Assembly (NCBI GenBank): GCA_945869465.1
Contig: CAMBPB010000024.1
Location: 1-38,249 of the forward strand
DNA: 38,249 nucleotides
Reading direction: 5' to 3'
DNA from: Prosthecobacter debontii
GTDB lineage: Bacteria; Verrucomicrobiota; Verrucomicrobiia; Verrucomicrobiales; Akkermansiaceae
Positions 9,969-38,249 of the stretch are shown here, piece by piece (position 1 is the first letter of the stretch; each line of letters begins with the position of its first letter). The notes under the pieces were generated by a model. The model made no database searches, was not told the origin of the DNA, and worked only from the letters and a program-made list of their open reading frames with translations. Made by a program: the position numbers and the translations under genes.

Positions 9969-10460
9969 ATGGACTGGATTATTGAGCATCTCCAAGTCGT
10001 CGTCGTCATCGCCGTGGTGTTTGCCTCGTGGCTGAAGCAGCGCCTCGATGCGAAGGCGGCGGAACGCGAGCAAAACCTGCCCCCGTGGGAAATGCTGGAT
10101 CAGGAGTATGACTTCGGTCCCGCCGAAAATTGGCAGCAACCGATGCCATCGGTCGCGCCACCGTTGGATAGTCAGATCCCGCCGCCGCTGGTGCGGCAAG
10201 TGATGGATGACCGCGAGAACGCGGCCCAGCTCAAGCGCCAGCACGACTTACAGGAACGCCTGCGGCAGATCCGGGAAACCAAGACCACCACCACCGGCGG
10301 CGCGGCCGCCACCCGCACCCGGGTGGCCGCGGCCCAAAGTCACGCCAAGCCGATCCTTGCCGCAAAAACCAGCATCCGCGAGACGTTGCGCAACCCCGAG
10401 GAAACCCGCCGCGCCGTCATCATGCGCGAGATCCTCGGCCCCCCCCCGGGCCTACATTGA
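9969..10460 (+). CDS. Small single-pass membrane protein of the NfeD/FloA operon (163 aa), function unknown
   Basis: I do not recognise a family. The N-terminus MDWIIEHLQVVVVIAVVFASWL is a signal anchor. A hydrophilic Pro/Gln-rich middle follows, and then a charged, probably coiled-coil stretch (DDRENAAQLKRQHDLQERLRQIRE) and a basic tail. The start is uncertain. ATG 9969 begins directly with the membrane segment but has no Shine-Dalgarno site. GTG 9930 overlaps the floA stop as GTGA and would translate the heptamer repeat. The final residues GLH and the stop codon come from the first base pairs of the palindromic repeat that begins at 10448, so the original C-terminus has been replaced. Confidence 0.65.
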   Translation: MDWIIEHLQVVVVIAVVFASWLKQRLDAKAAEREQNLPPWEMLDQEYDFGPAENWQQPMPSVAPPLDSQIPPPLVRQVMDDRENAAQLKRQHDLQERLRQIRETKTTTTGGAAATRTRVAAAQSHAKPILAAKTSIRETLRNPEETRRAVIMREILGPPPGLH

Positions 10461-10726
10461 GGACCGATCAATCAGGACCACGAGTCTCCCGACTCGCCGG
10501 CGAAAGGGCTGCCAAAAAACCGCGGCATCCGCCTCTTTCCTTTGCCGATCCTTTCTCGTGCGCGGCGGGAGACACGCGGTCCGGTCCCCGGGCCTGCATT
10601 GAGGACCGATCCGTCAGGACCGCGAGTCTCCCGACTCGCCGGCGAAAGGGCTGCCAAAAAACCGCGGCGTCCGCCTCTTTCCTTTGCCGATCCTTTCTCG
10701 TGCGCGTCGGGAGACACGCGGTCCGG
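10448..10726. repeat. Two direct copies (period 142 bp) of a MITE-like imperfect palindrome
   Basis: Copy 1 (10448-10584) and copy 2 (10590-10726) are about 96% identical with no gaps over 137 bp. Within each copy, 19-bp imperfect inverted arms (for copy 2, 10617-10635 GGACCGCGAGTCTCCCGAC and 10706-10724, one mismatch) enclose about 70 bp with a second weaker inversion (CGGCGAAAGG/CCTTTGCCG). This fills the 311-bp gap between the small membrane protein gene and argS, which converge here. No transposase is encoded. It looks like a non-autonomous palindromic repeat (MITE or REP/BIME-like), possibly also acting as a bidirectional terminator. The copies open spurious reading frames that should not be annotated as genes. 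Confidence 0.9.
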
Positions 10727-31302: not shown

Positions 31303-34300
31303 ATGACTGCTGCCGAGATCCGCCAAAGCTTCCTCGATTTTTTCCGCGAAAAACAGCACGCCATCGTGCCTTCCGCGTCGCTGCTCCCGCAGTCGCCCGG
31401 ACTGCTGTTCACCAACGCCGGGATGAATCCCTTCGTCCCATATTTCCTCGGCGTCGAAAAAGCCCCCTACGATCCGCCGCGCGCCGCCGACACCCAGAAG
31501 TGCATCCGCGCCGGCGGCAAACACAACGACCTCGAGGACGTCGGCTACGACACCTACCACCACACGTTTTTCGAAATGCTCGGAAACTGGTCCTTCGGCA
31601 ACTATTTCAAAAAGGAAGCCATCTCGTGGGCCTGGGAACTCGTCGTCGAACGCTGGGGCCTGCCCGCCCACCGCCTCTACGCCTCCGTCTATGCCCCGAA
31701 ACCCGGCGACCCCGGCCAATTCGACCAGGAAGCCTACGATCTCTGGGCCGCGCTCTTCATTTCCAAAGGCTGTGATCCCGCCATCCAGATCGTCAATGGC
31801 AACGTCAAGGACAACTTCTGGATGATGGGCGAAACCGGCCCCTGCGGCCCTTGTTCCGAACTCCACGTCGACCTAACACCCGAGGGCGACTCCCGCGGCA
31901 CCCTCGTCAACAACGACTCGGACCTCTGCATCGAGATCTGGAACCTCGTCTTCATCCAATACAACGCCGAGGCCGACGGCAGCTTCCGCGAACTGCCCGC
32001 CAAACACGTCGATACCGGCATGGGCTTCGAGCGCGCCTGCTCGATCATCCAGGGCACCAAGGGCTTCACCGATTTTTCTAACAAACCATCCAACTACGCC
32101 ACCGACGTCTTCACCCCGATTTTCCGCAAGCTGGAAGAACTCAGCGGCAAACAATACGTCAATATCTATCCGGCACCCGGCGCCGACCGCGCCGCCTTCA
32201 CCGGGGAGATGAAAACCGCGATTGCCTTCCGCGTCATCGCCGACCACCTCCGTACGCTCAGTTTCTCCATCGCCGACGGCATCATGCCGGGCAACAACGG
32301 GAGGAATTATGTGCTGCGCCGCATCTTGCGCCGTGCGGTTAGATACGGAAGACAGCTCGGTTTTTCCGGTGACAAACCGTTCTTCGGCGCATTGGTGGAA
32401 ACGCTGGTTGCCGAAATGGGCGGCGTTTTCCCCGAATTGAAGAATCGTCAGGATGTCGTCAGGCAGACGCTTGAGCAGGAGGAGGCGAGTTTCAATCAGA
32501 CGCTGGACCGCGGTCTCAAGCGCTTCGAAGAAGCGATCGGGGAGCACACGCGCCCTCGCGTGTCATCTGAGGCGCCCTCGCCTCAGATTGGTTCGAATTC
32601 ACCCAAACCCTCCGAACCCACCTACACCCGCCGCAACCTCCCTCACTTCGAGCGCCCATGGGGAAAATACATGGTCACCTTCGCCACTCTGGATCGTGAC
32701 GTCCTCAACGAGGCCGAACGCACCATCGTCCTCGAATCGATTCTCCACGCCCGCGAACTCGGCCACATCCACCTCTACGCCGCGTGCGTCATGCCCGACC
32801 ACGTCCATCTCCTCATCGAGCCGCAAATCAAATCTTCCGCTCAAGATTCCAACCCGACGTTTTACACTCTCACCGAAATCCTCCAGCCGATCAAATCCGT
32901 CACCTCGCACAAGATCCTCAAGGAGAGACGGAGGGTTCTCCAAAACGAAAACATCAAACACCTATGGGACCAGGAATCATTCGACCGCCTGATTCGCAGC
33001 GAGTCGGACCTGATTGAAAAATATGATTACATCATCGGCAATCCGGTGGATGCCGGCTTGGTGAAACATGCAAAAGACTACGCGTGGTTGTGGTGCCGCG
33101 AGTTCTCGGGTGATTCCGAGCATGTCGGAGACGAGGGCGTCTCCGACAACACGCGAGGGCGCGTGTGCTCCCCTAAGACTCTCTCCGGCTACGATGCGTT
33201 CGAACTCTACGATACTTTCGGATTCCCACTCGACCTCACAGAGCTGCTTTGTGCTGAACGCGGACTGAGTGTGGACACCAAAGAATTCGAAAAACTCATG
33301 GAGCAACAACAACAACGCTCCCGCGCCGCACAAAAATCCTCCATCGTGCGCGCGCTCGACATCTCCACGGATGCCGTCACCGAGTTCCTCGGCTTCGAAA
33401 CCGACGAAACCGCCGCCACCATCCTCGAAATCCACCCGCAGGAAGACACGCTTTTCGTCATCACCGACAAGACCGTCTTCTACGCCGAGATGGGCGGTCA
33501 AGCCGGCGACACCGGCACACTCAACGACATCCCCGTCACCGGCACCCAACAAATCGGCAACGCCCGCGCCCTGATCATTCAACAATCAGAAATCCACAAT
33601 CATCAATCCTCAATCCAGCCCGGCGACAAAGTCACCCTCAAGATCAACACCGCCCGCCGCCGCCCCATCGAGGCCCACCACACCGCCACCCACCTGCTCC
33701 ACTGGGCGCTGCACGAAGTCGTTTCCAAGGATGCCACCCAGCAGGGCTCCTCGGTCGATGAACACCGCCTGCGTTTCGACTTCAACAGCGCCGCCCTAAC
33801 ATCCGAGCAAATCGCGATGATGGAGGACAGGGTCAACGGCGCCATCAAGCAGGCCATGGCCGTTTCCTGGACCGAAGTGAAACACGCCGACATCAAGGGC
33901 CGCGCGGACATCATGCAGTTCTTTGGCGACAAATACGGCGAGATCGTCCGCGTCGTTGAGATCGGCGGCAAACGCAACGCCCTCGACGGCTACTCGATGG
34001 AACTTTGCGGCGGCACCCACGTCCGCAATACCAATGAGATCGGCCTTTTCAAAATCAAATCCGAGGGAGCCATCGCCTCCGGAGTCCGCCGCATCGAAGC
34101 CGTCTGCGGCGATTCCGCGTGGGCGTATCTCAACGAGTTCGTCGAAAACTGGGACCACGACCTCAAGGCAGCCCGCGCGAAACTCCACGCCGCCAATGAA
34201 AAGCTGACTGCTCTCGGCGAGGCTCCCGTCACGGTGAACGACTTCCCCCACATCATGGGAGCCATGCTTGCCGCACGCGCGGACATCAACGAAATCAACG

Positions 34301-34755
34301 CCACCTTCACCCACGCCCAACGCACGCTGGAAGAAACCCAGCAAGCCGCCGTCGAGGCCGAGAAACGCATCAAGAAGATCCAATCCTCACAAGCCGCCAA
34401 GCTAGCCGACGAGGCCCTAACCGATCTCATCGCCACCGGCGGACCGATCATCGTCTCCTTCGAGTCCGACGCATCATTGCTCCAGGAACTGCAAAACGGC
34501 CTCAAAAAGAAAGCCTTCGCCGGCCCCGCCCTGCTCATCGTCGATGACGGCGAGAAACTCCACCTCGCCACCCACTGCGGCCCGGACGCCCTCGCCAAAG
34601 GCCTCAAAGCCGGCGAATTGCTCCGCGATCTAACCGCCATCGTCGGCGGCAAAGGCGGCGGCAAGCCCGACCAGGCCCGCGGTGCCGCTCCCCAACGTGA
34701 AAAACTCGCCGAGCTCAAAGCAGCGGCTGCCAGGCTGATCGGAAACTGCAAATAA
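31303..34755 (+). CDS. alaS: Alanyl-tRNA synthetase with an in-frame RAYT transposase insertion (1150 aa)
   Basis: AlaRS charges tRNA-Ala. The class II aminoacylation domain (FFREKQHAIVPSASLLPQ, LLFTNAGMNPF) fills the N-terminus. The editing domain has zinc ligands HHTATH (His793, His797) and CGGTH (Cys902, His906), and a C-Ala domain ends in GKGGGKPDQARGAA. The normal length is about 870-940 aa. The excess is one block, residues 413-624, inserted after LDRGLKRFEEAI and before KTLSGYDAFELYDTFGFP, where other AlaRS have only a short loop. That block is a complete REP-associated tyrosine transposase with its REP hairpins, read without a stop. A heptamer repeat is translated at residues 759-772. 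All synthetase motifs survive, so the enzyme is probably active, unless the locus is a misassembly. Confidence 0.95.
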   Translation: MTAAEIRQSFLDFFREKQHAIVPSASLLPQSPGLLFTNAGMNPFVPYFLGVEKAPYDPPRAADTQKCIRAGGKHNDLEDVGYDTYHHTFFEMLGNWSFGNYFKKEAISWAWELVVERWGLPAHRLYASVYAPKPGDPGQFDQEAYDLWAALFISKGCDPAIQIVNGNVKDNFWMMGETGPCGPCSELHVDLTPEGDSRGTLVNNDSDLCIEIWNLVFIQYNAEADGSFRELPAKHVDTGMGFERACSIIQGTKGFTDFSNKPSNYATDVFTPIFRKLEELSGKQYVNIYPAPGADRAAFTGEMKTAIAFRVIADHLRTLSFSIADGIMPGNNGRNYVLRRILRRAVRYGRQLGFSGDKPFFGALVETLVAEMGGVFPELKNRQDVVRQTLEQEEASFNQTLDRGLKRFEEAIGEHTRPRVSSEAPSPQIGSNSPKPSEPTYTRRNLPHFERPWGKYMVTFATLDRDVLNEAERTIVLESILHARELGHIHLYAACVMPDHVHLLIEPQIKSSAQDSNPTFYTLTEILQPIKSVTSHKILKERRRVLQNENIKHLWDQESFDRLIRSESDLIEKYDYIIGNPVDAGLVKHAKDYAWLWCREFSGDSEHVGDEGVSDNTRGRVCSPKTLSGYDAFELYDTFGFPLDLTELLCAERGLSVDTKEFEKLMEQQQQRSRAAQKSSIVRALDISTDAVTEFLGFETDETAATILEIHPQEDTLFVITDKTVFYAEMGGQAGDTGTLNDIPVTGTQQIGNARALIIQQSEIHNHQSSIQPGDKVTLKINTARRRPIEAHHTATHLLHWALHEVVSKDATQQGSSVDEHRLRFDFNSAALTSEQIAMMEDRVNGAIKQAMAVSWTEVKHADIKGRADIMQFFGDKYGEIVRVVEIGGKRNALDGYSMELCGGTHVRNTNEIGLFKIKSEGAIASGVRRIEAVCGDSAWAYLNEFVENWDHDLKAARAKLHAANEKLTALGEAPVTVNDFPHIMGAMLAARADINEINATFTHAQRTLEETQQAAVEAEKRIKKIQSSQAAKLADEALTDLIATGGPIIVSFESDASLLQELQNGLKKKAFAGPALLIVDDGEKLHLATHCGPDALAKGLKAGELLRDLTAIVGGKGGGKPDQARGAAPQREKLAELKAAAARLIGNCK
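32539..32588. repeat. Left REP pair of the RAYT element
   Basis: Two adjacent hairpins with the same CCCT loop: ACACGCG-CCCT-CGCGTGT (32546-32563, 7-bp stem) and ATCTGAGGCG-CCCT-CGCCTCAGAT (32565-32588, 10-bp stem). The first, with its GGGGAGC foot, is the left arm (32539-32563) of the perfect 25-bp inverted repeat. Both are translated in alaS. Confidence 0.92.
33123..33173. repeat. Right REP pair of the RAYT element
   Basis: Two adjacent hairpins with AGGG loops, the complement of the left loops: TGTCGGAGACG-AGGG-CGTCTCCGACA (33123-33148, 11-bp stem) and ACACGCG-AGGG-CGCGTGT (33149-33166). The latter plus TGCTCCCC (to 33173) is the exact reverse complement of 32539-32563. Both are translated as the linker DEGVSDNTRGRVCSP. 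Confidence 0.92.
33577..33618 (+). repeat. Translated heptamer repeat inside alaS
   Basis: Six consecutive 7-mers, ATTCAAC AATCAGA AATCCAC AATCATC AATCCTC AATCCAG (consensus AATCNNC), lie in the editing-domain part of alaS and encode the low-complexity stretch QQSEIHNHQSSIQ. Composition is clearly A/T-richer than the flanking gene. Forty-two bases equal fourteen codons, so the array keeps the frame. Confidence 0.7.
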
Positions 34756-36523: not shown

Positions 36524-38249
36524 ATGAAAACTCTACTCAAATTCTTGGTCATACCCGCGCTGTGTCAGGCGTTGGTCTGCTCGCAAGCCTTCGCCCGCAA
36601 GAAAGACGACGATGAGTCGAAGAAAAGAGGCGGCCAAGGTGAAACCTCCGGCGGTGGACAGGTGCCGGTGCCGGTGCCGGTGCCGGTGCCGGCGCAAGGA
36701 GGGAAATCCGAATCCGGGAAAAGGGCCCAGAAACAGTTCCCGGATCCCGCCCCGGCTCCCAAAGCCAACAGAACCCCGAACCCCAACAGAACCCCGAACC
36801 CCAACATTACTCCGAACGCCAACAGAACTCCGAACGCCAACAGAACCCCGAACGCCGACAGAACCCCGAACCCCAACAGAACCCCGAACCCCAACAGAAC
36901 CCCGAACGCCGACAGAACCCCGGAGGCCGCCAGGGCCCCGGAGGCAGAAAAGGCGCCCAAGTCGGAGAATGCCCCTAAGCCAGATGGGGTAAAGAAGGCA
37001 GACAAGACAGAACAGCCAAAGAAGGAAATCAAGCCAATGCCTTTGCCGGACAAGGCAGACAAGGCAGACAAGGCAGACAAGGCAGACAAGGCAGACAAGG
37101 CAGACAAGGCAGACAAGGCAGACAAGGCAGACAAGGCAGAAGCCTCGCCCAAGCCGCTCGCCCTTCCGGGAAAACGCCCGAACGTGCCTCAATCCGGCAA
37201 GAAGAATGACGACGACAAGCTCTCCAAGAAAGGCGAACCTCGGAAAGTGGCCAAAACTCAAAAATCCGAGCCCAAGAAAAAGATGGTCGTGCGGCCCGGC
37301 CAGAACACCCAGCAGGTCAAACGCCCCAATTTCGAGAACCCCAAGACCAAGGCTTGGTGGGGCAGCGGCAACCACAAGTCGGTCAACAGGAGTGTCCACA
37401 TCACTAACATCAACAACAACTTCCGGCGCAATGTCAATTGGAGCACCCACCGTCACTGCTGGGGTTACAATCCCTGGTGGAGTCGTCCCGTCGTCCGCCC
37501 TTGGTATGCGCGTTCATGGAGCTTCGGATGGAGTCCCACCTATTATCGCCGGCATTACCACTACGGGTATCGTGGATACCGCCCGCCCGGCTATGTGGTG
37601 GTGCGTGACCCGATCGGCTGGGGTCTGATCGGCTGGAGTCTGGGAACCTTGATCTATGACGTCGGGTATCGGAGCTATCACAATCCCTACCGTGCGAGAC
37701 CGGTGCGCATTTCCCGTGAGGTCGAATACACCTACGACCAACCGATCACCCGGCTGGCGGTCAACACGGCTCCTGAAGACGATGCCGCCGTGGAGGAATT
37801 CACCAGCAAATCCGAGTCGTTGATGGGCGAGTCCCAAGCTGCGTTCAAGCAACGCAACTATTTGGTGGCCCTAGAATATGCGGACAAAGCCATCGCCGAA
37901 TCCCCGGGCGACGGTGCCCTCCATGAATACCGTGCCCTGGTGCTGTTTGCCCTCGGAAAATATGGCGAGGCTGCCGGCGTGCTCAATCCAGTGCTCGCAT
38001 CCGGGCCGGGCTGGGATTGGTCCACCATGATCGCCCTCTACGACGCGCAGGAAACCTACACCGACCAGTTGCAGAAGTTGGAAGCCTACTCCGAAGCTCA
38101 ACCGGACGCGGCTGACACGCATTTCCTGTTGGGTTATCATTACATGGTCTGCGGTCACCTGGACTTGGCAACGCCCCAGTTCGATCTGGCGGCCAAGCTG
38201 ATGCCCGCCGACAGCGTTTCCAAGGAACTGGCCGAACTCACGCGCAACT
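36524..38249 (+). CDS. Secreted repeat-rich protein with C-terminal TPR-like domain (partial, at least 575 aa)
   Basis: The frame is open from ATG 36524 to the window edge, so the C-terminus is missing. The signal peptide (MKTLLKFLVIPALCQALVC... ending QAFA) is followed by a long disordered region of tandem repeats: five VP units, about nine N/D-RTPN-x units and ten DKA units, mixed with Lys-rich segments. A Trp/Tyr/His-rich domain comes next (NWSTHRHCWGYNPWW, YYRRHYHYGYRGYRPPGY), then GWGLIGWSLGTLIYD, and helical TPR-like sequence (NYLVALEYADKAIAESPGDGALHEYRALVLFALGKYGEAA). The function is unknown; a cell-surface or cell-wall-spanning protein is inferred. Reading frames on the opposite strand here are mirror images of the repeats. 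Confidence 0.85.
   Translation, partial: MKTLLKFLVIPALCQALVCSQAFARKKDDDESKKRGGQGETSGGGQVPVPVPVPVPAQGGKSESGKRAQKQFPDPAPAPKANRTPNPNRTPNPNITPNANRTPNANRTPNADRTPNPNRTPNPNRTPNADRTPEAARAPEAEKAPKSENAPKPDGVKKADKTEQPKKEIKPMPLPDKADKADKADKADKADKADKADKADKADKAEASPKPLALPGKRPNVPQSGKKNDDDKLSKKGEPRKVAKTQKSEPKKKMVVRPGQNTQQVKRPNFENPKTKAWWGSGNHKSVNRSVHITNINNNFRRNVNWSTHRHCWGYNPWWSRPVVRPWYARSWSFGWSPTYYRRHYHYGYRGYRPPGYVVVRDPIGWGLIGWSLGTLIYDVGYRSYHNPYRARPVRISREVEYTYDQPITRLAVNTAPEDDAAVEEFTSKSESLMGESQAAFKQRNYLVALEYADKAIAESPGDGALHEYRALVLFALGKYGEAAGVLNPVLASGPGWDWSTMIALYDAQETYTDQLQKLEAYSEAQPDAADTHFLLGYHYMVCGHLDLATPQFDLAAKLMPADSVSKELAELTRN
36662..36691 (+). repeat. 6-bp tandem repeat (GTGCCG x5)
   Basis: Five perfect GTGCCG units encode alternating Val-Pro. 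The unit is two codons, so copy changes keep the frame. Confidence 0.9.
36767..36922 (+). repeat. 18-bp tandem repeat (eight full units plus a partial one)
   Basis: Units of AACAGAACCCCGAACCCC and close variants (GCC for CCC, GAC for AAC, one ATTACT) encode NRTPNP, NRTPNA, NITPNA and DRTPNP hexapeptides. The last unit decays into DRTPEAARAPEAEKAP. Confidence 0.9.
37049..37138 (+). repeat. 9-bp tandem repeat (GACAAGGCA x10)
   Basis: Ten perfect copies encode (Asp-Lys-Ala)10, then GAAGCC. Perfect identity between copies suggests recent slippage expansion. A related GCAGACAAGACAGAA lies just upstream. Confidence 0.95.

What the first reader, a model, noticed from the sequence alone, without database searches (positions are those of the whole stretch)
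31303..34755. Transposase carried as an in-frame internal domain of alanyl-tRNA synthetase
A complete RAYT transposase plus its REP hairpins (about residues 413-624) lies inside one uninterrupted alaS frame, same strand and same phase. AlaRS motifs are intact on both sides, as are the HUH histidines and the tyrosine region of the RAYT. IS-type insertion normally kills a gene. Here a mobile element sits in an essential gene and appears to be tolerated as a surface domain at a loop where AlaRS length varies. It could give the transposase expression and strong selection against loss, much like an intein but without protein splicing motifs.
Basis: partly seen in the sequence, partly recalled or inferred. 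Interest (0 to 1): 0.95.

Follow-up and report, generated by a model that had tools for sequence, protein, structure and literature searches.

The report
Transposase living inside essential enzymes
In this bacterium the gene for an essential enzyme, alanyl-tRNA synthetase, contains a whole transposase element read in the same frame, as do other housekeeping genes here and in its relatives, so a mobile element likely survives by being translated as an extra, predicted separate lobe of enzymes the cell cannot lose.

Summary
One 1150-aa frame (31303-34755) encodes AlaRS with a RAYT/IS200-type transposase domain inside; it is the only alaS found in a 93.5%-complete genome. The insert (32539-33173) is bounded by 66-nt inverted repeats of two hairpins each. 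It is no one-off: 11 of 43 resolved alaS genes in the genus carry this insert, 4 a second RAYT kind at the same site, the rest are empty or hold other inserts. Of the best 80 relatives in species genomes, 78 are Verrucomicrobiota; 77 lie in AlaRS, MetH, RecG or ThrRS frames (70 with host sequence on both sides), one in PriA, two are free-standing. A second RAYT subfamily sits in frame in IspG (also in this genome), MetH and LeuRS. The insert is under purifying selection (dN/dS 0.10, below the AlaRS C part), keeps HUH and Tyr, and its hairpins covary. Its ends are stop-poor and coding. Its placement is intein-like, without splicing. In-frame REPs and RPE peptides are known; an intact transposase element living in frame in essential genes at recurrent sites was not found in the held papers. 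Mobility, one-piece expression and activity of the fused enzyme are inferred.

The parts
31303..34755 (+). alaS frame with insert, 1150 aa
   Evidence: one open frame; Pfam; single alaS
31303..32538 (+). AlaRS N part (residues 1-412); residues 3-413 align to E. coli AlaRS 4-382 (3hxu)
32539..33173 (+). in-frame element, 635 nt, GGGGAGC...GCTCCCC ends
   Evidence: inverted repeat ends; empty site in relatives; 11 of 26 measured AlaRS-410 elements have this same length
32539..32604 (+). left terminal inverted repeat (66 nt)
32546..32563 (+). left hairpin 1, CCCT loop
32565..32588 (+). left hairpin 2, CCCT loop
32614..33105 (+). RAYT (TnpA-REP-like HUH transposase) core domain, residues 438-601
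   Evidence: nearest solved fold 4er8
32797..32808 (+). HUH motif D499-H500-V501-H502
   Evidence: HxH kept in 221 of 224 domains
33028..33030 (+). catalytic tyrosine Y576 (Y---NP motif)
   Evidence: alignment to 4er8; invariance in the aligned sets
33108..33173 (+). right terminal inverted repeat (66 nt)
33123..33148 (+). right hairpin 2, AGGG loop
33149..33166 (+). right hairpin 1, AGGG loop
33174..34755 (+). AlaRS C part: rest of tRNA-synt_2c, editing (SAD) and DHHA1 domains

Best explanation
The alaS gene contains, in frame, a complete RAYT-type transposase element whose hairpin ends are themselves coding and which brings no stop codon of its own, so that it is likely translated as an extra lobe of alanyl-tRNA synthetase and would persist as a selfish element inside genes that the cell cannot do without. 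Shown: one open frame; terminal inverted repeats at the junctions; the same architecture (GGGGAGC-like end, two hairpins, RAYT, mirrored end) in AlaRS, MetH, RecG and ThrRS of many Verrucomicrobiota; catalytic residues and purifying selection kept; hairpin stems that covary; empty, occupied and differently occupied alleles mixed among close relatives. Inferred: the fusion is made as one polypeptide, AlaRS works with the lobe attached, the HUH domain nicks single-stranded hairpin DNA as other RAYTs do, insertion in the right frame into a surface loop is what survives because other hits in these genes are lethal, and the element then passes between lineages mainly by allelic recombination, possibly started by its own nick (homing).
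For: Single frame and domains; only alaS in the assembly. The insert is shared by 10 other genomes of the genus; nine of them match co-linearly over the whole protein at 82-86% identity, G040 in two pieces at 81 and 89% (7). Inverted repeats and hairpins at the junctions. Of the 80 loci, 75 have enough flank: 68 score over 14 for an inverted repeat against 0 of 75 for the mean of 10 shuffles each; 74 have hairpins (no control for that). Stems covary: mean 6.72 (60 left ends) and 6.56 (68 right ends) of 7 pairs, against 5.27 and 4.87 when arms are dealt among loci; among 15 distinct left stems pair 4 is C-G in 7 and G-C in 7. dN/dS median 0.098 in RAYT against 0.070 and 0.195 in the AlaRS N and C parts, 11 genomes. 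HxH in 221 of 224 domains. Hosts of 80 relatives: 41 AlaRS, 20 RecG, 12 MetH, 4 ThrRS, 1 PriA, 2 free; host sequence on both sides in 70. RAYT lineages stay with their site: 18 label changes on a tree of 119 domains, minimum 9, shuffled mean 51.6. Ends stop-poor: all three forward frames open in 39 of 50 left and 47 of 50 right terminal 50-mers, against 50% and 53% in shuffles. Free-sized relatives read through the ends too: of 96, 90 carry the left-end peptide, 70 the right-end one. Predicted lobe with low-confidence linkers 414-452 and 585-624; fold of 4er8.
Against: No expression, activity or mobility data. Free-standing relatives at about 50% identity are common (970 proteins of about 116-369 aa, fragments included, the best 120 seen), so the family is not bound to host genes. 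Among the 80 loci the frame is broken on one side in two (L173, L182) and cut by the end of the sequence in five more plus PriA. Tyr is lost in G026/L127 (apparently one genome of the A group) and in free copy L178; HUH in L157, L165 and P0093. In 438 kb of the own genome the hairpins occur at the insert and at 2 other doubtful places: no sign of spread within the genome. RAYT synonymous divergence exceeds that of the flanks (dS 1.24 against 0.84 and 0.71), not what recent spread predicts. Insert and host distances agree overall (Pearson 0.78) but poorly within distance classes (Spearman 0.22-0.38). The RAYT tree is weakly resolved (59 of 116 inner branches open). The stem test chose the position with most pairs, which favours the observed value. 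The window's own left end has a stop in one of three frames. The fused AF2 model is of modest confidence (pLDDT 71, pTM 0.39).
Confidence: 0.75

Rival explanations
1. Domesticated domain: the RAYT was captured and now serves AlaRS (nucleic-acid binding, regulation), no longer as a mobile element.
For: dN/dS 0.098, within the range of the enzyme's own parts; the same site is used in several orders of the phylum; in the listed rows no other copy of this kind (all other RAYT matches are at 47% identity or less) is seen in the genus.
Against: Close relatives lack it (pair G007 empty, G031 filled; 12 presence/absence changes); two RAYT kinds occupy the same site; the same family sits in enzymes with nothing in common with AlaRS; DNA hairpins at the ends covary, which a protein-only role does not need.
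Confidence: 0.15
2. Passive passenger: a dead insertion that is kept because only in-frame deletions or allele replacement can remove it.
For: Essential gene (general knowledge); a few copies have lost HUH or Tyr; REP-like scars without transposase exist at the site.
Against: dN/dS 0.10 rather than near 1; HxH in 221 of 224; covarying hairpins.
Confidence: 0.05
3. The insert is removed after transcription or translation (intron- or intein-like splicing).
For: Intein-like choice of genes and recurrent sites.
Against: No intein family in the Pfam scan; no intron family in Rfam for 32300-33400, only one match under its gathering score; the insert evolves as protein.
Confidence: 0.03
4. Assembly or binning artefact.
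For: The window's genome is a draft in 161 contigs, and most records are MAGs.
Against: Same junctions in many assemblies; an IspG case under the species name Haloferula helveola on a 5,677,198-base contig.
Confidence: 0.01

Closest known systems
RAYT / TnpA-REP transposases and TIRtrons (TIRYT), IS200/IS605 class (PMC3733652, PMC6006769; structure 4er8)
   Same: HUH plus single Tyr, Y---NP motif, 4er8 fold, terminal inverted repeats that fold as hairpins; repeats overlapping the transposase gene are mentioned in PMC3733652
   Different: Those are described as genes of their own; here the whole element, ends included, is read in frame inside essential genes. [quoted passage not shown]
Intragenic REPs, e.g. 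Opitutus terrae uvrA (PMC3733652 section 15), and Rickettsia palindromic elements (PMC10969869 passages)
   Same: palindromic DNA read in frame inside housekeeping genes, tRNA synthetases among them
   Different: those inserts encode short peptides (20-82 aa in PMC3733652) and no transposase is described in them; here an apparently catalytic transposase is included
Inteins (general knowledge, no call)
   Same: in frame, recurrent sites in a small set of essential genes, patchy among relatives, endonuclease inside
   Different: no splicing domain; the lobe is predicted to stay in the enzyme

Membership tests
RAYT / TnpA-REP (class 2 TnpA-Y1) | HUH motif and catalytic Tyr in Y---NP | tested here: met
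   H500-V-H502 and Y576..NP
RAYT / TnpA-REP (class 2 TnpA-Y1) | TnpA-REP fold | tested here: met
   Foldseek best hit 4er8, E 2.8e-07, prob 1.00, TM 0.59/0.64
RAYT / TnpA-REP (class 2 TnpA-Y1) | matching REPs dispersed in the genome | tested here: not met
   438 kb sample (about 12% of the assembly): 4 at the insert, 2 doubtful others; hence 'RAYT-type domain', not a RAYT with a REP population
TIRtron (TIR-flanked tyrosine transposase) | terminal inverted repeats around the transposase | tested here: met
   66 nt, 82%; 68 of 75 related loci
TIRtron (TIR-flanked tyrosine transposase) | GGGGWSAS motif (shared by some TIRs only, PMC3733652) | tested here: inconclusive
   ends begin GGGGAGC: first six positions fit, the seventh does not
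TIRtron (TIR-flanked tyrosine transposase) | transposition | not testable with these tools
   -
Intein | splicing (Hint) domain | tested here: not met
   no such family in the Pfam scan
Rickettsia palindromic element | short palindromic insert of about 150 bp without transposase | tested here: not met
   635 nt with a RAYT domain; size of RPEs from PMC10969869

The most novel reading that the evidence does not exclude
A new class of mobile element: splicing-free, intein-like transposase elements whose whole length is coding, which live as translated HUH lobes of essential enzymes and move from allele to allele by nicking and copying into the same loop of the same gene.
Probability: 0.35. Interest if true: 0.95.

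Novelty: new variant of a known kind. Interest (0 to 1): 0.87.

Why it matters
If true it shows another way, besides inteins and introns, for a mobile element to shelter in genes the cell needs: be translated along and do little harm. It offers natural, repeated domain-insertion experiments in AlaRS, MetH, RecG, ThrRS, IspG and LeuRS, with empty and filled AlaRS alleles among close relatives, and it makes the question of how single-copy RAYTs persist directly testable. It also warns annotation and phylogenomics work: one classification discarded such long proteins (PMC6006769) and several databases name them as plain enzymes.

Tried and rejected
A dispersed REP population in the own genome: looked for in 438 kb, not found. 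Intron or riboswitch: Rfam gave only one match under its gathering score. The phylum search with a strict profile (E <= 1e-30) found 7 of 288 genomes, all in frames of 730-1316 aa; in one of the seven (L058) the AlaRS N part is not seen because the stretch ends in low-complexity sequence. That search misses divergent and free-standing relatives, which one search shows to be common, so the idea 'this family exists only in frame' was dropped. The idea of fixed end sequences was dropped: stems vary and covary. Clean excision was not supported: the closest empty/filled pair differs by replacement of some 15-18 nt of loop. Simple vertical descent was rejected within the genus; simple recent horizontal spread is not supported by dS. 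Pattern counts rest on hand-made patterns.
Full report
OBSERVATION. The window has one open frame of 1150 aa at 31303-34755. Pfam reads it as AlaRS (tRNA-synt_2c in two stretches, tRNA_SAD, DHHA1) with a Y1_Tnp domain between. It is the only alaS found in the window's assembly (G000, 3.59 Mb, 161 contigs, 93.5% complete).

WHAT THE INSERT IS. A profile of 17 such domains matches one solved protein by sequence, 4er8, TnpA-REP. An AF2 model of 180 residues (pLDDT 84.5, pTM 0.79) has 4er8 as its best Foldseek match (E 2.8e-07), followed by IS608 and ISDra2 transposases. The HUH pair is H500/H502; the tyrosine is Y576 in Y---NP, the class 2 signature given in PMC6006769 (passages). In an AF2 model of the whole protein from 49 sequences (pLDDT 71, pTM 0.39) the AlaRS helix 383-412 ends at the junction, residues 414-452 and 585-624 have pLDDT under 50, and the next helix starts at 629: a tethered lobe is predicted, with modest confidence. 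By sequence the AlaRS part before the insert ends at residue 382 of the 3hxu chain; in human AlaRS (4xem) only a few residues stand between the two matched stretches. The own genome has 23 Y1_Tnp matches at E <= 0.1; two of them lie in frames over 900 aa, alaS and ispG, the others I did not study.

THE SITE IN THE GENUS. A search of 61 genomes of the genus (own included) with the whole protein hit 59 (its list of matches is cut at the end). From loci and two fetches of stretches I read 52 alaS rows from 51 genomes; 43 could be cut on both sides of the site, 9 rows could not and were left out (G009, G010, G016, G032, two pieces of G036, G050, G053, G057). Of the 43: 11 carry this insert (A), 4 a second RAYT kind at the same place (B), 16 a short loop, 12 a longer loop without RAYT. 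Some loops look like REP scars or REP pairs without transposase (G023, G047, G019, G055, G044; my reading). On the tree of the AlaRS host part presence/absence needs 12 changes (well-supported branches alone force 7 for A and 4 for B), and the four states 20, close to shuffled labels (22.0; as low in 35 of 200). The closest pair, G007 (empty) and G031 (filled), is 76-100% identical per 60-nt stretch, mostly over 90. G011 is a mosaic: its N-side flank resembles G001 and G013, the 3' half of its RAYT resembles G000 more. G012 differs from near-identical G002 by a replaced segment that takes in flanking bases. So alleles of this loop are exchanged, most simply by recombination; whether the HUH nick starts it (homing) is open.

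SELECTION. Over 11 A genomes (55 pairs) the NG86 dN/dS median is 0.070 for the AlaRS N part, 0.098 for RAYT (6 pairs with undefined dS) and 0.195 for the AlaRS C part; the 4 B genomes (6 pairs) give 0.083, 0.096 and 0.158. A frame kept open only for AlaRS would let RAYT drift towards 1. RAYT dS is higher than that of the flanks (1.24 against 0.84 and 0.71), which speaks against recent spread and would fit exchange with diverged alleles or a higher rate (inference). HxH is present in 221 of 224 domains of at least 150 aa; eight rows failed a strict Tyr pattern, of which by eye three lack the Tyr (L127 and G026, apparently one genome, and L178).

HOW WIDE. A protein search with the RAYT region of the fused protein gave 765 hits, of which the best 120 were listed: 112 carry the AlaRS family by Pfam, 6 are MetH, 1 ThrRS, 1 HrpB; 12 of the 120 hold two RAYT domains. 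A scan of 84,980 species genomes gave 151 relatives, of which the best 80 were kept: 78 named as Verrucomicrobiota, 1 as Kiritimatiellota, 1 without phylum. Their hosts: 41 AlaRS, 20 RecG, 12 MetH, 4 ThrRS, 1 PriA (frame cut by the end of the sequence) and 2 free-standing. Of the 77, 70 have host sequence on both sides of the insert in one frame, 5 are cut by the end of the sequence, 2 are broken on one side (L173, L182). Sites recur, in reference coordinates: AlaRS near 410 and 295, MetH near 375 and 1000, RecG near 370, ThrRS near 170. A strict phylum search found 7 of 288 genomes, all 7 in frames of 730-1316 aa: AlaRS in five counting the window, RecG in two. RAYT lineages follow sites: 119 domains (of 231, after leaving out short ones and near-copies at the same site), 18 changes of site label against a minimum of 9 and 51.6 in shuffles, on a tree with 59 of 116 inner branches open. 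Host and insert distances of 86 AlaRS-410 proteins (of 116, near-copies left out) correlate (Pearson 0.78, 0 of 500 permutations as high; Spearman 0.68) but weakly within distance classes (0.22, 0.25, 0.38).

A SECOND SUBFAMILY. The same genome carries a different RAYT in frame inside its only IspG/GcpE gene (G000:C1), bounded by 44-nt, 82% inverted repeats. A protein search with that region gave 870 hits; of the 120 listed, 113 carry IspG families and 7 MetH families by Pfam, and 119 keep an NHxH motif somewhere in the protein. One, P0326, bears the name Haloferula helveola, on a 5,677,198-base contig; that this is a cultured species is recalled. Among 20 further loci fetched from the genus such domains occur in IspG (twice in L122), MetH (twice in L109, and by resemblance in L108), LeuRS (L111, by resemblance L121) and an adenosine deaminase (L119) (Pfam for L009, L109, L111, L119, L122; sequences, whose output was cut).

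THE ENDS ARE CODING. In 75 of the 80 loci with enough flank the best inverted repeat between the two sides scores 29.3 on average (shuffled 7.8); 68 score over 14 (0 for the shuffle means); 74 have hairpins. The left end typically reads GGGGAGC, hairpin, hairpin. Stems change on both sides together (the stem position was picked for most pairs, which helps the observed value, but distinct stems show C-G and G-C at the same pair). In 50 elements with both ends recognised, all three forward frames are open in 39 left and 47 right terminal 50-mers, against about half in shuffles (the elements are related, and the window's own left end has a stop in one frame). The ends are read in more than one frame. 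Among free-sized relatives of the window's domain (the best 120 of 970), 100 are of 180-245 aa and 96 have a recognisable core: 90 contain the left-end peptide, 70 the right-end one, 67 both, and in 30 of 62 with a clear right-end peptide the stop follows two residues after it. So start and stop seem to come from the surrounding DNA. That makes the element transparent to translation and would explain how it can become a domain.

MECHANISM (inferred). Insertions into essential genes survive only when in frame and in a tolerant loop; stop-poor ends and an ORF without its own stop make that outcome possible; the fusion would give the transposase steady expression; loss needs an in-frame deletion or replacement by an empty allele, which recombination supplies. 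Nothing here shows that the fusion is one polypeptide, that AlaRS is active with it or that the element still moves.

LITERATURE. PMC3733652 (passages, and sections 15 and 16 in full) describes intragenic REPs of 20-82 aa, most numerous (GTAG type) in Opitutus terrae, and TIRtrons with repeats that can overlap transposase genes; in these sections I saw no whole transposase read inside another gene. PMC6006769 (passages) discarded unexpectedly long TnpA-Y1 proteins as fusions or annotation errors. PMC10969869 (passages) reviews in-frame RPE insertions. PMC2817692 held none of the six terms tried; PMC4853749 (passages) was not relevant. JGI annotation already names such proteins 'alanyl-tRNA synthetase/REP element-mobilizing transposase RayT'. 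Searches whose listings showed no report of this phenomenon; the library lacks most subscription papers and all preprints.

Noticed in passing
G000:C1:124770-127202 (loci L009, L223, L224): A second, different RAYT sits in frame inside the only ispG/gcpE of the same genome, with its own 44-nt inverted repeats.
   Followed up: partly
L109 and L108 (MetH), L122 (IspG), L150 (AlaRS), P0010, P0026, P0049: Some enzymes carry two RAYT domains at separate sites in one frame.
   Followed up: partly
alaS of G012, G015, G018, G021, G025, G037, G041, G048, G051: The same AlaRS loop also holds other inserts, about 15-55 residues longer than the short loop and without RAYT; near-identical AlaRS genes differ by a swapped loop.
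   Followed up: no
G005:C28:7743-10313: A second AlaRS, 51% identical in its N part, in a genome that also has the fused one: foreign gene or contamination.
   Followed up: no
L119:1170-3797: Adenosine deaminase frame with an N-terminal Cas_NE0113-like (CRISPR-associated) stretch and a RAYT inside.
   Followed up: no
window 36764-36945 and 37049-37140: Tandem arrays of 18-nt units and of a 9-nt unit (10.2 copies of GACAAGGCA, 100% matches) inside a 307-aa open frame.
   Followed up: no
window 10444-10726: Two 142-nt tandem copies, 95% matches.
   Followed up: no
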